The position numbers and the translations under genes were made by a program. 64,000 bases of DNA, taken from NCBI RefSeq assembly GCF_027594145.1, contig NZ_JAQFFK010000003.1:186001-250000 (forward strand). Direction: 5' to 3'. Below the pieces are notes generated by a model. The model had not been told where the DNA came from. It ran no database searches and was given only the letters and a program-made list of their open reading frames with translations. Origin of the DNA: Methanococcoides alaskense (GTDB lineage Archaea; Halobacteriota; Methanosarcinia; Methanosarcinales; Methanosarcinaceae). Positions 21,753 through 31,301 of the stretch are shown here, one piece after another; the first letter of the stretch is position 1; every line of letters starts with the position of its first letter.

Positions 21753-22148
21753 ATGAAACACTATGACGTAGTTGCAGCAATAATCATGGATGATGATAAA
21801 GTTCTATGTGTTCAAAGAAATCATGGGAAGTACGATTACATTTCTTTAAAATATGAATTCCCAGGTGGAAAAATAGAACCTAATGAAACTAGGGAACAAG
21901 CATTAGAACGTGAATTATTAGAGGAACTCGATCTAAATATAGAAATAGGGAGAGAATTTCTAACTGTAAATCATCAGTATCCTGATTTTAGTATCACTAT
22001 GCACAGTTTCATTTGCACTGCTTTAAATTCAACATTGAACCTGAAAGAACATATTGCGTTTAAGTGGTTAAATCCAGAAAATTTATCAACTTTGGATTGG
22101 GCTGAAGCAGATTTACCAATTATTTCAAAATTAATGAAGGAATATTAA
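21753..22148 (+). CDS. NUDIX hydrolase (MutT-like)
   Basis: The protein has 131 residues. The Nudix box runs from GGKIEPNE through REQALERELLEELDL, matching Gx5Ex7REUxEExGU except that the last Gly is replaced by Asp. The strand VVAAIIMDDDKVLCVQRN at the start is typical of MutT / CTP-pyrophosphohydrolase proteins, which hydrolyse damaged or non-canonical nucleoside triphosphates. The stop is one base before the helicase start, so the two are translated together. Composition and codon use (A+T-rich) match the helicase rather than the core genes, suggesting they moved as one unit. Confidence 0.9.
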   Translation: MKHYDVVAAIIMDDDKVLCVQRNHGKYDYISLKYEFPGGKIEPNETREQALERELLEELDLNIEIGREFLTVNHQYPDFSITMHSFICTALNSTLNLKEHIAFKWLNPENLSTLDWAEADLPIISKLMKEY

Positions 22149-22149
22149 A

Positions 22150-25074
22150 ATGGATGAATTTTCTGAATCTTTATTAGATAGCTTGAAAACTGGTTTTATT
22201 GATCAGTCCTTTACTTCAAAAAAAGAGTATCTTCCAGAGTTATTAGTAAATGATACTGATAATGGGAAAAAAGTATTAAAGACAATAACTAGGGAACTAA
22301 AAAATTGTGACGAATTTTGGTTTTCTGTAGCATTTGCAACAAAAAGTGGTGTAACTAGTCTAATTAATTCATTCCAAGAACTTGAAAATGCTGGAATTAA
22401 TGGAAAAATATTGGTATCCCAATATCAATATTTCACTCAGCCAGAAGCATTAAGGGCTTTGTCAAAATTTAAAAACATTGACTTAAAGATAGCAGTAGAC
22501 TGTGATTTTCATGCAAAGGGATATCTATTCAGAAAAAGCAATAGATATAACTTAATTATTGGCAGTAGTAATCTTACAGCTAATGCATTATGCTCAAATA
22601 AAGAATGGAATTTAAAAATTTCAGCTACTCCTGATTCAAAATTGATAGTTGATTCCATCAATGAATTTAGAAATGAATTTGAAAATGCTGTATTGGTAGA
22701 TGATGAATTCATTGAATCCTATGCGTTAGATTATAATTTGAATAAGAAATTCATTTCAAGTTCAAGAAAAAGCATCGAATCTCACCACAATGATTCAATA
22801 ACTCCCAATTCAATGCAAAAGGAAGCATTGGAAAACTTGAAAGATTTAAGGTCAAACAATAAAGATAAAGCTTTATTAATTTCTGCAACAGGAACTGGAA
22901 AAACATATCTTTCTGCATTTGATGTAAAAGCATATAATCCGAAAAAGTTTTTATTTGTAGTTCATCGAAGAAATATTGCAGAAAATGCGATGAAAAGCTT
23001 CGAAAAAATTTTTGGCGACAGTCGAAGCATGGGTCTTTACTCAGGAAATGAAAGAGAAATTAATGCAGATTTTATTTTTTCAACAATTCAAACTATTTCT
23101 CGTGATGAACATTTAAGGCAGTTTAATGAAAGTCATTTTGATTATATAGTTATAGACGAAACTCATCGAGCAGGGGCAAAAAGTTATCAAAAAATCCTCA
23201 ATTATTTTAAACCAAAGTTTTTGTTGGGTATGACTGCTACTCCTGAAAGGACAGATGGCTTTGATATCTTTTCTCAATTTGAACACACCATTGCATACGA
23301 AATACGTTTGCATAGAGCTTTAGAAGAAAAAATGTTATCGAATTTTCATTATTTTGGTGTGACTGATGTTACGGTAGATGGTCAAGTCTTAGATGAGGAT
23401 GCTGCTTTCTCTTTATTAACAGCTAAAGAACGTGTGGATAGAATAATTGAAAACGCTGAATTTTATGGCTGTGATAATGGCTGTGTGAGAGGACTTATTT
23501 TTTGTAGCAGGGTTGATGAAAGTCAGGGACTGTCTGATGCATTTAATACAAGGGGATACAAGACAATTTCATTATCTGGCAAAAATAGTGAGGAAGAGCG
23601 AATTAATGCAATAAACAGATTGGAAAGTTATGATCCTTCTGAAAAATTAGATTATATTTTTACTGTTGATATCTTCAATGAAGGCGTAGATATTCCAAAA
23701 GTAAATCAAATTATTATGCTGAGACCAACAGCATCAGCCATCATTTTCGTACAGCAATTAGGAAGAGGATTGCGTAAAGCTAATGACAAAGAATATCTTA
23801 CTGTAATTGATTTCATAGGCAATTACAATAATAGTTACTTAGTCCCAATTGCATTATATGGGGACACTACTTACAACAAGGATACATTGCGTAAATTGAT
23901 GTTAAGTGGAAGCAGTTTAATTCCGGGTGCTTCAACTATCAATTTTGATAAAATTACGCATGAGAGGATTTTTACAGCAATTGACAAAGCGAATTTACAT
24001 CTCAAAAAAGATCTTGTAAAAGATTACGAGCTTTTAAAATTCAAGATAGGTAGTATTCCTATGATGATGGACTTTGTAGAACATGGTTCTCGTGATCCAC
24101 AATTATATGCAAAATATTTAAAATCCTATTTTAATTTTGTATCAAGTCAAGAGGAATCATTACAAGACAAGCTCTCTAAAAATGAAGTCAAATTACTCGA
24201 ATTATTCTCAAATGAGATCGCAAACACAAAAAGAGTCGAAGAAGTTGTTATTCTCAAAAAACTGATTTCTCAAAAAATTCTGTTAAAGGAAGAATTTAAA
24301 GCAATTATTTTTGATAAATATGGAATTTCGCTTCCTGATGAAACAATAGAATCGTCTATCAAAAATATCAATTTTGAATTTGTAACTGAAAATCATAATA
24401 GAAAACTAGTGAGTGTAAGTGAAAAATATGATTTAAACATCATTTCTTATGCAAATGAAGTGATCACATTTAATAATGAATTTATAGATTTACTCAAAAA
24501 TGAGACTTTCTTGCGTTTTCTAAATGATATGCTGGACTATTCCGAAACAATTTATAATCGAAATTTTGACAAAAATAAATATGTTGATGGCTTCCTATTG
24601 TATCAGAAATATTCCCGAAAAGATGTTTTTAGAATTCTGAATTGGGATAAGAATCCTTTGGCACAAAATGTTGGAGGTTATCTTATTAGTCCTCAGAAGA
24701 CAAATTGTCCAATATTTGTGAACTATCACAAAGAAGAGGATATTTCGAGTACTACGAAATATGAAGATGGTTTTGTCAATAATTCTGAATTTGAATGGAT
24801 GTCTAAATCTGGAAGAAAACTGGATAGCAAAGATGTTGCTACTATTAGAAATTACAGAAAGGGTCTTAGATTGCCTTTATTCATCAAAAAAAGCAATGGC
24901 GAAAGTAATGATTTCTACTATATGGGTGATGTGACCCCAATTGATGAAAGTTTCGAACAAACTAATCTGGTTGATGACAATAATAAAAATGTTTCAGTTG
25001 TAAAAGTAAAATATAGGATGAATCACCCTGTTGAAGATTCGATTTATGATTATATTACAGCACCAAGCAGTTAA
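22150..25074 (+). CDS. PLD nuclease-SF2 helicase-DUF3427 protein
   Basis: The protein has 974 residues. An N-terminal phospholipase-D-type domain has HAKGYLF and GSSNLTANAL near residue 120-145. An SF2 helicase follows: Walker A SATGTGKTYLSA near 245, DETHRAGA (DExH box), MTATPERTDG and QQLGRGLRKA. The C-terminal 170 residues (VDGFLLYQKYSRKDVFRILNW region) match DUF3427. Such proteins are found in genomic islands, often next to a NUDIX gene as here. A role in defence against foreign DNA is inference from architecture and context. All helicase motifs are present and the frame is intact. Confidence 0.88.
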   Translation: MDEFSESLLDSLKTGFIDQSFTSKKEYLPELLVNDTDNGKKVLKTITRELKNCDEFWFSVAFATKSGVTSLINSFQELENAGINGKILVSQYQYFTQPEALRALSKFKNIDLKIAVDCDFHAKGYLFRKSNRYNLIIGSSNLTANALCSNKEWNLKISATPDSKLIVDSINEFRNEFENAVLVDDEFIESYALDYNLNKKFISSSRKSIESHHNDSITPNSMQKEALENLKDLRSNNKDKALLISATGTGKTYLSAFDVKAYNPKKFLFVVHRRNIAENAMKSFEKIFGDSRSMGLYSGNEREINADFIFSTIQTISRDEHLRQFNESHFDYIVIDETHRAGAKSYQKILNYFKPKFLLGMTATPERTDGFDIFSQFEHTIAYEIRLHRALEEKMLSNFHYFGVTDVTVDGQVLDEDAAFSLLTAKERVDRIIENAEFYGCDNGCVRGLIFCSRVDESQGLSDAFNTRGYKTISLSGKNSEEERINAINRLESYDPSEKLDYIFTVDIFNEGVDIPKVNQIIMLRPTASAIIFVQQLGRGLRKANDKEYLTVIDFIGNYNNSYLVPIALYGDTTYNKDTLRKLMLSGSSLIPGASTINFDKITHERIFTAIDKANLHLKKDLVKDYELLKFKIGSIPMMMDFVEHGSRDPQLYAKYLKSYFNFVSSQEESLQDKLSKNEVKLLELFSNEIANTKRVEEVVILKKLISQKILLKEEFKAIIFDKYGISLPDETIESSIKNINFEFVTENHNRKLVSVSEKYDLNIISYANEVITFNNEFIDLLKNETFLRFLNDMLDYSETIYNRNFDKNKYVDGFLLYQKYSRKDVFRILNWDKNPLAQNVGGYLISPQKTNCPIFVNYHKEEDISSTTKYEDGFVNNSEFEWMSKSGRKLDSKDVATIRNYRKGLRLPLFIKKSNGESNDFYYMGDVTPIDESFEQTNLVDDNNKNVSVVKVKYRMNHPVEDSIYDYITAPSS

Positions 25075-25090
25075 TAGGGCTAAGTTGGGC

Positions 25091-25137
25091 TAAAGCCGTC
25101 GTAGTGCTTTTTTGGGACTACTACGGTATGCTCTCTG
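25091..25137 (-). pseudogene. Fragment of a HIT-family gene
   Basis: These 47 bases match 25699-25745 inside the intact HIT gene with only 4 differences and the same orientation. On the minus strand the fragment encodes REHTVVVPKKHYDGF, the HIT motif region RGHTVVVPKKHYDSF of the intact gene, then runs into a stop. It lies directly after the helicase gene. It is a partial duplicate or the remnant of a related gene left by rearrangement. Confidence 0.7.
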
Positions 25138-25263
25138 ACAACTTTCAAAACAAAAGGTATAATTTTAAGTCAATACAATCTAAACTATTAGTATCTGTTA
25201 ATATCTATCAAATTAATAGATAATCTGGTTTTAGCAAATAAAGTTGAACTTTTGTGAGAAATC

Positions 25264-25392
25264 ATGAATACACAAGGTGTATCTTATGCTACGGCAAGAA
25301 ACGACTTATTTCATCTTGAAGAAATTGGTCATCTCAAAAAACAAAAATCCGGGAAGGAGTTTTTATTTGTTTTAATACGCAATGATGCATAA
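25264..25392 (+). pseudogene. Winged-helix fragment (C-terminal HTH piece)
   Basis: An ATG-initiated frame of 42 codons encodes VSYATARNDLFHLEEIGHL then KKQKSGKEFLFVL. This is a winged helix-turn-helix recognition helix and wing such as those at the C-terminus of Fic-family or DeoR-like proteins. The rest of such a protein is missing upstream, where stop codons occur. It is probably the last piece of a deleted gene, although a tiny DNA-binding protein cannot be excluded. Confidence 0.5.
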
Positions 25393-25435
25393 AAGCGTTA
25401 AGATCAATAACTCCTCTCTCATACTTTGAGCTTTA

Positions 25436-25846
25436 TCAATCAACCCTCAACATCTCAGCCAATTCTTCCAGATCGTTCCCTGCACCGCTGACAGATACTA
25501 TCGAATGCATTGAACCGCCATTATCCCCGTCCATTCTCGGAATGATGTGTACATGCACATGTGGCACTACCTGACCGGCAGCAGCCTTGTTATTGAGACC
25601 GACATTTGAGCCGTCCGCTGACATTGCATCCTCTAACATCCCTGTTAGCATTTTCACGGTGGCGAAAAGGGAACCTGCATCTTCCGTTGGCATATCGGTA
25701 AAGCTGTCGTAGTGCTTTTTTGGAACAACTACGGTATGCCCTCTGGAACAGGGGTTTATGTCAAGGAAAGCATAGGTCTCCTCGTCTTCATAGATCTTAT
25801 GGGATGGGATATCTCCCTTTATTATATTGCAGAACAGACAATCCAT
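25436..25846 (-). CDS. HIT-family nucleotide hydrolase/transferase
   Basis: The protein has 136 residues from the ATG at 25846, preceded by GAGGAG at the right distance; five further upstream codons would include that site. It contains the N-terminal metal motif CLFCNII, RGHTVVVPKKHYDSF, and the catalytic triad GQVVPHVHVHIIPR near the C-terminus. HIT proteins hydrolyse nucleotide phosphoramidates or dinucleoside polyphosphates. This gene has the composition of the core genome and appears to be a resident gene surrounded by island material. On the minus strand TTATAAATAAG (about 25873-25885) is its likely TATA box. Confidence 0.92.
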   Translation of the reverse strand: MDCLFCNIIKGDIPSHKIYEDEETYAFLDINPCSRGHTVVVPKKHYDSFTDMPTEDAGSLFATVKMLTGMLEDAMSADGSNVGLNNKAAAGQVVPHVHVHIIPRMDGDNGGSMHSIVSVSGAGNDLEELAEMLRVD

Positions 25847-26241
25847 ATTTTGACTCCTCATATATAGTTCTGCTTTACTTATTTATAATATTCTGACGGA
25901 CATTCTTTATTTCTTGTGTCTGTTGTATGTTGCTAGCAATGCTATTGCGAGCAGTGCTGAGGGTTAATTCTTTTCCATTTCCAATCTAAGCCTTCGTACC
26001 GATTCTACCAATTGATAGGGTGACTGAGTTTCCTTCAATGCGTGGTTTTTTGGATAAGGAGTAGATTGAATCTGTGATATATCGTAGGGTGTGACTTTGA
26101 ATTATAAAAAGAAAGGTTGAAATCGTTAGTTTTCACGTTTTAAAAATCGATATGCTTATATTTACCATACATGCTATTATGGCACATATAAAATATTTAA
26201 TTCAAATAATATGTCGGGGTAGTATATTGGTGTTACACATA
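25847..26241. other. Intergenic region between HIT and NERD-helicase genes
   Basis: The interval holds the divergent promoters. TTATATTTA at 26156-26164 is the best TATA box for the NERD-helicase gene. The in-frame ATG at 26152 falls on this box and so is not a likely start. No gene is supported in the rest. Confidence 0.5.
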
Positions 26242-28239
26242 ATGCAGGTTGATTCATCCAATTTAACAAATGGGGAAAAAAGGATTGCTAATAAGATAAA
26301 ACAGATTTATGCAGATTCAACTTGGAACGCATATCTCTATTATCAACCTCGCATTAAAAAATGGAATCCGGATTTTGTTTTGATTGATGAATATAAAGGC
26401 GTTTCCATTATTGAAGTCAAGGATTGGAGTTTGGAAAATATCGAAAAAATAAATCCATTAACTGCAGTTATTAATGGTACATCGAGACACAATCCAATAT
26501 ATGTAGCAAATGAATATTACAATGCTGCAAAAAGCAGATTGCAGAACCAATTAACATTATTAGATGACAATTATGAACTAAAGTATGGTCTCTATTCTAA
26601 TCTAGTATTTACTAATTTAAAGTCACGCGAAATCGAAGAATGGGATCCATGTTTTTTTCAACCACCTTCAAAGTGCATAACGTCTGAAAGAATCAGTGAT
26701 CTTACAATTAACGATCTTTTTTCTGAAGAAGTTCAATATATTGAAGAATATGATTTTTCAGTACTTAGAAGCGCTTTCTTTCCTGAAATAAAAGTTAAAA
26801 GTGTACAGAAGGAGTTATGGGAATATGGTAGAAAAAACAGCACTGAAAATAGCATAATTAAAACGCTTGATTCTGAACAAGAAAAGTTTGCAAGAAGGAT
26901 TCCGTATGGTCATTACATGGTTTCAGGAATTCCTGGAAGTGGGAAAACAGTTATCCTTTTGGCAAGAGCTGTAAATCTTGCTAGGGAAAATCCAAACTGG
27001 AAAATTAAGATTCTAACTTACAATGCCACTCTTGCTACAAAATTGAATCATAAACTTGAGTCGATTCATGAAGATTTAGGCATCATGGGAGTAAACTACC
27101 AGAACATTGAAATTTCAACATTCCATAGCCTTGCAAAATCAGTTGCAGATATTGGTTCTGTTCCTGATCCTGTCCCAGAGAACTATTGGAAAATAATATT
27201 ACCTTACAAAGCAATCGAAAATGCACGTCCTATTTACGATGCTATTTTGATCGATGAATATCAAGACTTCCATGATAGTTGGATGAAACTTTGTTTGTTG
27301 TTATGCAAAAAGTATGATTATAATGGTCAACAAACTGAAAACTTGTTTTTGGCTGGTGACAGATTACAGAGTATCTATAACCCCTCTACACACAATTGGA
27401 AAAGTTTAGGAATTAATATTGCAGGTAGATCCAAACTGTTAAAGACATCTTACCGATCAGGCAGCACTCACGTGAATTTAGCTCTGGATTATTTAATGAA
27501 AAATCCATCAACAAAAAGAGAAGTTGAGAACTTTTATGAAGGTAGAGATGGAATCTGTTGTGATTTTGATATTGACAACAATCTTGAGTTCATTAAAGGC
27601 GATTTTAAAGTAATCAATGAGTTACTTGAAGATTTATTGAAAAAACCACAGTACAATCCTGAAGACATACTAGTTTTGGTTCCAAGTAATTGGCTACGTG
27701 ACAAGTTGTATAAGTTTTTAAGTAAAGGTCTGAAAACAAACTCAGTAGCTACAAAATACGTTATGGAAAACAAGATTAATTTTGTTACATACCATTCTGC
27801 CAAAGGTATTGAAGCTAAAGTTTGTATCCTTGTTGATGTAGATAAAGTCACAGACAAGAAACTTTTGTACGTAGGGATGACTCGTGCTTCTGAGAAATTG
27901 ATAATTCATTCTCCAGATTCAGAGGGTGGGCCTGTTTTCAATGAGTTACTTGAATGTTACAATCATCTTGTGAGTGACAAACCTCCCTCAGCTGAAAAAA
28001 AGGAAGTGTTTGAGCCTGCGAAACCAGTTAAAGATTTAAAGTCGGATCATGAGAAGTACAAACTTGATGATGTAAGAAAGACTCATTCAAATGCATACCA
28101 GAAATGGACTTCTGAGGAAGAATCCAATTTGATTAAAATGTACGCACATGGAAATAAGTTTGATAAAATAGCTTCTGAGTTAGGAAGACAGAAAGGTGGA
28201 ATTAAAGCACGTCTACAGAAGCTCGGTCTTGTTAAATGA
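26242..28239 (+). CDS. NERD-domain SF1 helicase with C-terminal Myb-like HTH
   Basis: The protein has 665 residues from the ATG at 26242; an in-frame extension to 26152 would begin within the promoter. The N-terminal NERD nuclease-related domain has PDFVLIDEYKGVSIIEVKDW (Asp and Glu-x-Lys of the PD-(D/E)XK fold) near residue 50-70. A UvrD/Rep-like helicase follows, with Walker A SGIPGSGKTVILLA, Walker B AILIDEYQDFHD, KTSYRSG, TYHSAKGIEAK and VGMTRASEKL. The last 45 residues (KWTSEEESNLIKMYAHG) resemble a Myb/SANT-like HTH. It probably processes DNA ends or invading DNA. It stands alone in the island; the defence role is inference. Confidence 0.87.
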   Translation: MQVDSSNLTNGEKRIANKIKQIYADSTWNAYLYYQPRIKKWNPDFVLIDEYKGVSIIEVKDWSLENIEKINPLTAVINGTSRHNPIYVANEYYNAAKSRLQNQLTLLDDNYELKYGLYSNLVFTNLKSREIEEWDPCFFQPPSKCITSERISDLTINDLFSEEVQYIEEYDFSVLRSAFFPEIKVKSVQKELWEYGRKNSTENSIIKTLDSEQEKFARRIPYGHYMVSGIPGSGKTVILLARAVNLARENPNWKIKILTYNATLATKLNHKLESIHEDLGIMGVNYQNIEISTFHSLAKSVADIGSVPDPVPENYWKIILPYKAIENARPIYDAILIDEYQDFHDSWMKLCLLLCKKYDYNGQQTENLFLAGDRLQSIYNPSTHNWKSLGINIAGRSKLLKTSYRSGSTHVNLALDYLMKNPSTKREVENFYEGRDGICCDFDIDNNLEFIKGDFKVINELLEDLLKKPQYNPEDILVLVPSNWLRDKLYKFLSKGLKTNSVATKYVMENKINFVTYHSAKGIEAKVCILVDVDKVTDKKLLYVGMTRASEKLIIHSPDSEGGPVFNELLECYNHLVSDKPPSAEKKEVFEPAKPVKDLKSDHEKYKLDDVRKTHSNAYQKWTSEEESNLIKMYAHGNKFDKIASELGRQKGGIKARLQKLGLVK

Positions 28240-29893: not shown

Positions 29894-30913
29894 TTAGTTA
29901 TTTGATGAAATTATGTCAAAGACTTGATCCAAAATATTTTCCATTATAAGGACATCCTGGATCACATATATATTTTCAAACACTTGGCTATCCCCCAAAT
30001 CTTGCCGAAAGTTCTTTGTAAATAGTATTCCCTTTTCGACACCAAGTAAACTCATTGTGCCTTTTAATTTCAAAACGTCTGGCATCCCCACGTTTCCTTT
30101 ATCTTTACATTTGCATTCGATAATACAGTAAGGTTCATTATTCTTGGTTATAAGGACATCCACTTCGGTAATGGTACTCCCTGTATTTATTTCAGAGTCT
30201 CTCAACAAATCATCTACACTGTCCACTTGACTCTGATAATCTTTTGAAACACTTACCCCATGGTGAATTCCTATCAACTCAGTTTCTTGAAATTTAGTCT
30301 TTAGTGAATGATATAGCCAGAGTTCTAGAAATAAACCACTGTTTTCTTTTTTCATCCACAATTCATTAAATTTATCTGAAATGCTATAAAAACAGATTTT
30401 TGGAGTTACTTCACATGGTTTGAAATGCTCAATAGCATCGCATTTATCAGGACATGTGATCGCATCAAAAGTTATTCCGTTACTTTTGTCATCGATACTA
30501 TCAATCTATGATGAAAGTGAAAGGACACCAATTCTTTCAGCTTTTTCACAAACGTGACTCAATTCTCTTTCAAGTTCAGTTGTGAATAGATTATTTGCTT
30601 TGTTAGCTAACATTGCAATATAATTAAAAAATGGGGAGTCACTTGTACCAGGCAACGAAACAGGTATAATTTTTGATTTTCTTACAAAATCTAACAAATG
30701 AAACAAATCCATATCTTTTCCATTGCATTTTTTCAATAGATCTGCATATGTAGAATCGATAAAAAATTGACGAAGGGATAAGTCATCTTCCAACTTCATG
30801 AATAAATTACGAATAGATGTATCTTCAATGATAGAATTATGAGATAAAATAAATTCGAAACCGTTTTCAGCTGGGAGTACGGTGGGGGAGATACTTTCGG
30901 TAGACATAATCAA
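29894..30913 (-). CDS. PD-(D/E)XK nuclease-like protein with in-frame TAG (possible pyrrolysine)
   Basis: Two open segments, 135 codons (30509-30913) and 203 codons (29897-30505), lie in the same frame and are separated only by TAG at 30506-30508. The 48 codons after TAG contain no ATG, GTG or TTG, and the first later candidates (TTG 30361, ATG 30355) have no ribosome binding site. A single readthrough protein would have 339 residues. Its C-terminal half carries GLFLELWLYHSL, then EVDVLI (Asp252) and CIIECKCK (Glu266, Lys268), the PD-(D/E)XK nuclease pattern resembling DUF1887/Card1-type C-terminal domains. The N-terminal half is mostly helical and unrecognised. The start overlaps the preceding gene by about 41-47 bases. 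A nonsense mutation is the alternative. Confidence 0.65.
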
Positions 30914-31280
30914 TGATTCTTGCTCTTGGAAGTTTTGCTAATTTCGCTAATTTCATCATCGTAGAACTTGGAATTTGCTTAGATTCAGAACTGACCGCAG
31001 AGTCGGATAACCTATAACAATAAGTTATGTACTCTCCATGAGTTTCACAGTCTTCAATGATGTCGCCTTCAAATACCATTTCGTCAAGAGTGTCGGTCAA
31101 TTCTTGAGAATATGGACCATAGTGATATTCATCATAATCAAATTGTTTATCTAGTCCCAATTCCTCTTGCCCTAAAAATACAATCTTTTGCAGTTTCGTC
31201 CTTCCTTTTATATCTGGAATACCCGAAAACATTTCGCGAAGAAAATCTTTGCGAGATTGACCTATACGATCCTCTGACAT
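30867..31280 (-). CDS. YwgA/DUF4065-like protein
   Basis: The protein has 137 residues from the ATG at 31280, which follows GAGAGGGGGTG; the ATG at 31301 lies before that site. The core RTKLQKIVFLGQEELGL and FDYDEYHYGPYSQELTDTL is typical of the YwgA / DUF4065 (SocA/Panacea-related) fold, in which KLQK and YGPYS are conserved. Members often act as antitoxin-like or regulatory partners of an adjacent gene. Here the stop lies inside the start of the nuclease-like gene, so the two are translationally coupled and probably form one module. The role as partner or regulator is inference. Confidence 0.75.
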   Translation of the reverse strand: MSEDRIGQSRKDFLREMFSGIPDIKGRTKLQKIVFLGQEELGLDKQFDYDEYHYGPYSQELTDTLDEMVFEGDIIEDCETHGEYITYCYRLSDSAVSSESKQIPSSTMMKLAKLAKLPRARIIDYVYRKYLPHRTPS

Positions 31281-31301
31281 TTGAATCACACCCCCTCTCA
31301 T

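What the first reader, a model, noticed from the sequence alone, without database searches (positions are those of the whole stretch)
29894..30913. In-frame TAG inside a nuclease-like gene: candidate pyrrolysine protein or readthrough
Codon-by-codon reading shows that the 135-codon segment and the downstream nuclease segment share one frame with a single TAG (30506-30508) between them. The 48 codons after TAG have no start codon of any kind and read as ordinary protein (ITFDAITCPDKCDAIEH). The PD-(D/E)XK residues lie only after the TAG, so readthrough would be required to make the nuclease. Methanosarcinaceae decode TAG as pyrrolysine for methylamine methyltransferases; a pyrrolysine in a nuclease of an island would be new. 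If real, nuclease production would depend on the pyrrolysine supply.
Basis: partly seen in the sequence, partly recalled or inferred. Interest (0 to 1): 0.88.

Follow-up and report, generated by a model that had tools for sequence, protein, structure and literature searches.

The report
Nuclease gene with internal pyrrolysine codon
A defence-type DNA-cutting enzyme gene in a methane-making archaeon is interrupted by one TAG codon that this organism very probably reads as the rare amino acid pyrrolysine; it is a further case of a known phenomenon rather than a new kind of system.

Summary
On the minus strand, 30913-29894 is one frame with a single TAG at 30506-30508, and the Mrr-type nuclease match lies only after it. 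The pyrrolysine reading survives the tests that could be run. The genome has a complete pylT-S-B-C-D cassette and both its mtmB genes carry a TAG. The only two relatives found are uninterrupted one-frame proteins (342, 331 aa) with Tyr and Cys at the TAG position. In a 464 kb sample of the genome TAG ends only 3 of 321 ORFs of at least 150 aa. The part after the TAG shows no faster change. So the TAG most likely inserts pyrrolysine in a variable linker and the full nuclease is made. The TAG is not conserved, so nothing shows that pyrrolysine matters for activity or acts as a switch; neutral gain, as reported for M. acetivorans Thg1, fits best. A recent nonsense mutation or an assembly error cannot be excluded without peptide or read data. 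Verdict: a new member of a known kind, of modest interest.

The parts
29894..30913 (-). full Mrr-like nuclease gene read through the TAG (339 residues)
   Evidence: full-length one-frame relatives
30506..30508 (-). in-frame TAG, codon 136, probably pyrrolysine; Tyr and Cys in the two relatives
30509..30913 (-). N-terminal segment before the TAG, 135 codons, no family match that passes a cut-off
29894..30505 (-). C-terminal segment with the nuclease domain (Mrr_cat; D252, E266, K268 of the read-through protein invariant in 3 of 3)
30867..31301 (-). upstream partner gene, 144 aa, overlaps the nuclease start by 47 bases; partial DarG and PDC-M19A matches; same overlapping neighbour in both relatives (47 and 35 bases)

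Best explanation
This is a two-gene, overlapping unit of a probably acquired, defence-type island in a methylotrophic archaeon that encodes pyrrolysine. The second gene makes a nuclease with an N-terminal part of unknown family and a C-terminal Mrr-like PD-(D/E)XK domain. A sense codon in the linker became TAG. Because the cell has a CUA tRNA for pyrrolysine and scarcely uses TAG as a terminator, the ribosome inserts pyrrolysine there and the whole nuclease is still made, possibly with some truncated 135-residue product. The change is most likely neutral. Shown: gene structure, relatives, cassette, TAG usage in a sample. Inferred: actual insertion, its efficiency, the enzyme's activity, neutrality.
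For: Cassette: tRNA-Pyl with CTA anticodon; PylS, PylB, PylC, PylD and MtbA above NCBIfam cut-offs. Need to decode: both mtmB matches have exactly 1 TAG. TAG as ORF end, at least 150 aa, in samples of 464 kb (own) and 400 kb (each other): own 3 of 321, same-genus G016 7 of 267, G076 10 of 227, G061 31 of 276, while TAG makes up 17-20% of stop trinucleotides in all four; own against G076 P 0.01, G061 P 3e-8, G016 not different (P 0.20). Of the own 3, two run on 107 and 157 codons, the first with a winged-helix match after the TAG, and one is pylB. Relatives: found in 2 of the 110 other genomes of the family searched, open frames without a stop. No decay: columns where one protein alone differs number 13, 15, 22 before and 21, 27, 27 after the TAG (own, L004, L005), so the own copy changes least on both sides. 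A random single-base nonsense change here would be TAG only about 23-24% of the time. Same-family precedent: an amber reporter in M. acetivorans gave 20-30% full-length product with pyrrolysine (PMC2933860 section 7).
Against: The TAG is in neither relative. No peptide, RNA or read data. Only two relatives, at 40 and 38% identity, too far for a dN/dS test; a very recent nonsense mutation would look the same. In the first 49 aligned columns after the TAG the own branch is only tied for shortest. pylB shows that a TAG in this family can still be a terminator, and in the precedent the reporter product was mostly amber-terminated. The gene's codon fit is below the 5th percentile of sampled genes. 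The run-on statistic loses significance without doubtful ORFs. The RNA downstream of the TAG folds only a little better than shuffles (z -1.75).
Confidence: 0.82

Rival explanations
1. Recent nonsense mutation: the TAG acts mainly as a terminator and the gene is a young pseudogene on a mobile island.
For: TAG not conserved; gene not found in the other 10 genomes of the genus; TnpB gene next door; low G+C, 32-34% against 43.8 sd 3.7 for sampled genes.
Against: No other stop or frameshift in 339 codons; no faster change after the TAG; in the sample TAG is rarely an ORF end, and mtmB must be decoded.
Confidence: 0.1
2. Two separate proteins: the N-terminal part ends at the TAG and an internal start (TTG 30361 or ATG 30355) makes the nuclease domain alone.
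For: The invariant residues D252, E266, K268 lie after both starts (codons 185 and 187).
Against: Both relatives are single proteins with invariant residues between the TAG site and that start; by eye no Shine-Dalgarno motif before either start.
Confidence: 0.04
3. Assembly or sequencing error at the TAG.
For: Draft assembly, 76.6% complete, 6 contigs; reads not available.
Against: One in-frame codon and no frameshift; other genes of the sample also continue past a TAG.
Confidence: 0.04

Closest known systems
Thg1 (tRNA-His guanylyltransferase) of Methanosarcina acetivorans
   Same: In-frame TAG in one lineage only, translated as pyrrolysine, not needed for activity (PMC2933860 section 9; the original paper is not held)
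   Different: RNA-processing enzyme, pyrrolysine physically observed; here a DNA nuclease of an island, sequence evidence only
Amber-containing transposases and a TetR regulator of Methanosarcina
   Same: TAG in genes outside methylamine metabolism, some mobile; close M. burtonii copies of the transposases lack the amber (PMC2933860 section 9; PMC3639795 passages)
   Different: The amber is conserved among the M. acetivorans and M. mazei transposase copies; here it is in one of three known family members
Mrr_cat (PF04471) restriction endonucleases
   Same: C-terminal domain, 25.3 bits against a cut-off of 21
   Different: N-terminal part without family, overlapping small partner gene, a TAG in the linker; the two relatives score below the Mrr_cat cut-off
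Archaea that read TAG as pyrrolysine throughout (recalled: Kivenson and others, Science 2025; not held, nothing seen)
   Same: TAG rare as ORF end in the sampled genome
   Different: No proteome here; pylB still seems to end at a TAG

Membership tests
Pyrrolysine-containing proteins | pylT, pylS, pylB, pylC, pylD in the genome | tested here: met
   A first look for PylC with PF21360 found nothing, but TIGR03909 hits at 575 bits over 248.3
Pyrrolysine-containing proteins | coding homology on both sides of one in-frame TAG | tested here: met
   relatives align 16-334 and 23-339 of 339
Pyrrolysine-containing proteins | pyrrolysine detected in the protein | not testable with these tools
   needs mass spectrometry
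Functionally required pyrrolysine (as in MtmB) | TAG conserved among relatives that have pyl genes | tested here: not met
   Tyr and Cys at the site; PylB hits in G061 and G076 indicate at least pylB there; their other pyl genes were not searched
Mrr-like PD-(D/E)XK nuclease | profile match over the curated cut-off | tested here: met
   window protein 25.3 bits over 21; against: the two relatives have 14.2 and 15.3 for Mrr_cat and match HSDR_N best, 17.7 and 17.6 under a cut-off of 25.1
Mrr-like PD-(D/E)XK nuclease | catalytic D and ExK residues present | tested here: met
   D252, E266, K268 invariant in 3 of 3; that these are the motif residues is recalled knowledge
Mrr-like PD-(D/E)XK nuclease | PD-(D/E)XK fold | tested here: inconclusive
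   single-sequence model useless, mean pLDDT 30.2
DarG-type antitoxin or known defence pair (partner gene) | match over a curated cut-off | tested here: not met
   DarG 23.4 bits against 250; PADLOC PDC-M19A E 8.3e-8 and DarG 7.6e-7, partial matches, no cut-off given; Pfam: no match above a cut-off for the 3 copies

The most novel reading that the evidence does not exclude
The TAG is a kept switch: the nuclease (and so its balance with the overlapping partner) is made in full only when the cell makes pyrrolysine, coupling an island's defence or toxin-like enzyme to methylamine metabolism and keeping it silent in hosts without pyl genes.
Probability: 0.06. Interest if true: 0.75.

Novelty: new member of a known kind. 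Interest (0 to 1): 0.36.

Why it matters
It adds a probable DNA nuclease of a defence-type island to the genes that carry a pyrrolysine codon outside methylamine metabolism. Annotation with the standard bacterial and archaeal table splits it into two fragments and hides the enzyme, and would do the same to other genes of this genome that continue past a TAG. If the insertion were shown to control the nuclease, it would link the genetic code of a host to what mobile genes can do in it.

Tried and rejected
PF21360 as a marker for PylC gave no match in the own genome although pylC is there: a profile miss. Scans for relatives with the single protein and with the three-row alignment found none in genome contigs, none in viral contigs (alignment only), none in plasmids (single protein only); these tools say that records very near the window's genome may be left out, and the phage collection was not searched. 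A sample of 392 genomes of the phylum gave the same three only. Solved structures: one chance-level hit, a ribosomal protein, E 0.071. Structure predictions of the read-through protein and of the partner, each from one sequence, had mean pLDDT 30.2 and 40.1 and were neither used nor searched. A specific RNA structure after the TAG: z -1.75, 8 of 200 shuffles as good, not pursued. Papers: search listings only; passages of PMC8211752 and PMC11363022 added nothing that I use.

Rows dropped: none from the main counts. Of the 8 own ORFs of at least 100 aa that end in TAG, two (L015 from 405 and from 1182) look spurious to me by eye and one (L017) is unclear; they stay in the count, and one search gives the result without the two and without the finding itself.

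Full report
What is there. The feature lies on the minus strand. From a TTG at 30913 (an ATG follows two codons on) the frame runs 135 codons to a TAG at 30506-30508 and then 203 further codons to a TAA at 29894-29896. No start codon occurs in the 48 codons after the TAG; the first are TTG at 30361 and ATG at 30355. Pfam Mrr_cat matches residues 245-300 of the read-through protein, 25.3 bits over a cut-off of 21; the part before the TAG has no match above a cut-off.

Is it one protein? A search of 111 genomes of the family, the own one included, found the protein in 3: the own genome and two others, G076 and G061. In both relatives it is a single open frame, 342 and 331 aa, without an inner stop. 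In the alignment (40 and 38% identity to the window protein) the TAG column holds Tyr (TAC) in L004 and Cys (TGC) in L005. Most neighbouring columns vary, so this looks like a loosely constrained linker between the invariant VCEKA on one side and the nuclease part on the other. D252, E266 and K268 are invariant. In all three genomes a small gene of 135-148 aa overlaps the nuclease start by 47, 47 and 35 bases; its copies are 53 and 59% identical to the window copy, so the pair is a conserved unit. A sample of 392 genomes of the phylum showed the same three only; genome contigs, viral contigs and plasmids gave none, with the reservation that records near the window's genome may be left out there.

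Does this cell read TAG? The sequence tests point that way. tRNA-Pyl with anticodon CTA lies at L008 11132-11203, followed by pylS, pylB, pylC, pylD and mtbA, all over their NCBIfam cut-offs. Both mtmB matches carry one TAG in an otherwise open frame. In 464 kb of the own genome (the window and 20 stretches of 20 kb) 3 of 321 non-overlapping ORFs of at least 150 aa end in TAG, and 8 of 405 of at least 100 aa. The comparison genomes, 400 kb each, give 7 of 267 (G016, same genus), 10 of 227 (G076) and 31 of 276 (G061) at 150 aa, while TAG is 17-20% of stop trinucleotides in all. The own share differs from G076 (P 0.01) and G061 (P 3e-8) but not from its genus mate G016 (P 0.20). The ORF choice is mechanical (greedy by length), so these are estimates.

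What follows the TAGs? Of the 8 own ORFs, five run on 60 codons or more, against 52 of 397 with TAA or TGA ends (permutation P 0.0014); G016 gives 7 of 15 (P 0.0006), G076 2 of 18 (P 0.37), G061 6 of 38 (P 0.20). But one of the five is the finding itself and two look spurious; without the finding it is 4 of 7 (P 0.008), without all three 2 of 5 (P 0.14). So this statistic supports only mildly. By content, three other own genes appear to continue past a TAG: a protein with DUF4116 repeats before and a winged-helix match after it (L012), a DUF3795 protein whose 30 codons after the TAG read as a cysteine-rich tail (L018; no family match above a cut-off there), and a 2,437-codon ORF that goes on for 157 codons to what looks like a membrane segment (L015). 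The exceptions are pylB, whose TAG comes two residues after the end of its family match, and perhaps L017.

Is the gene decaying? Counting columns where exactly one of the three proteins differs, own, L004 and L005 have 13, 15, 22 before the TAG and 21, 27, 27 after it; estimated own branches are the shortest on both sides, and tied with L004 in the first 49 columns after it. There is no second lesion. A random single-base nonsense change in this gene would be TAG about 23-24% of the time, a mild point for TAG being the tolerated one. The gene's codon fit is better than shuffles but below the 5th percentile of sampled genes, as an acquired gene or a decaying one might be. With only two distant relatives a very young nonsense mutation cannot be excluded.

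Where does it come from? G+C is 32% before and 34% after the TAG against a mean of 43.8 (sd 3.7) for sampled genes. Its neighbours are a TnpB gene, a NERD-UvrD helicase, a type IV restriction enzyme and a PDC-S07 candidate. The other 10 genomes of the genus gave no match. So it is probably an acquired, defence-type island; the partner gene resembles parts of DarG and PDC-M19A only weakly, so a toxin-antitoxin role is a guess.

How it most likely works. A sense codon in the linker turned into TAG in a host that decodes TAG. Pyrrolysine is inserted, the full nuclease is made, and selection does not object. The review PMC2933860 (sections 7 and 9 read) reports that an amber reporter in M. acetivorans gave mostly terminated product but 20-30% full-length product with pyrrolysine, and calls UAG both sense and stop in archaea with pyl genes; it also describes Thg1 of M. 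acetivorans, with an amber codon that only that lineage has and that is not essential for activity. PMC3639795 (12 of 18 passages and section 16) discusses the same drift for other genes. The present case fits that pattern, so it is a new member of a known kind. In this genome efficiency may be higher than in M. acetivorans, since TAG is nearly free of its stop role, but that is inference.

Names. A 2025 report of archaea that read all TAG codons as pyrrolysine is recalled and was not seen.

Noticed in passing
L008 8576-9817 (-): pylB ends in TAG, and the 42 codons after it are open and overlap pylC. In 11 of 11 genomes of the genus, the own one included, the match to the 106-residue query has exactly one TAG and no other stop; the TAG end is in print for M. 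mazei, M. acetivorans and M. burtonii (PMC2933860 section 9). Where TAG is rarely a stop it could extend PylB when pyrrolysine is plentiful, but the overlap with pylC may explain the open frame.
   Followed up: partly
L013 7942-9063 (+): A TnpB-like gene of the own genome has an in-frame TAG at codon 297 inside its Cas12f1-like TNB match (residues 280-345): another mobile gene with a probable pyrrolysine.
   Followed up: partly
L012 2378-3259 (-), L015 10206-17993 (+), L018 9794-10213 (-): Further own-genome ORFs that appear to continue past a TAG: a DUF4116 protein with a winged-helix match, a very long protein with a C-terminal membrane-like segment, and a DUF3795 protein with a cysteine-rich tail.
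   Followed up: partly
window 21753-28239: Defence-type genes near the finding: PDC-S07 candidate, type IV methyl-directed restriction enzyme and NERD-UvrD helicase.
   Followed up: no
window 30867-31301 (-): Small partner gene, 53 and 59% identical in the two relatives, with partial matches to DarG and PDC-M19A; may be an antitoxin-like or regulatory partner of the nuclease.
   Followed up: partly
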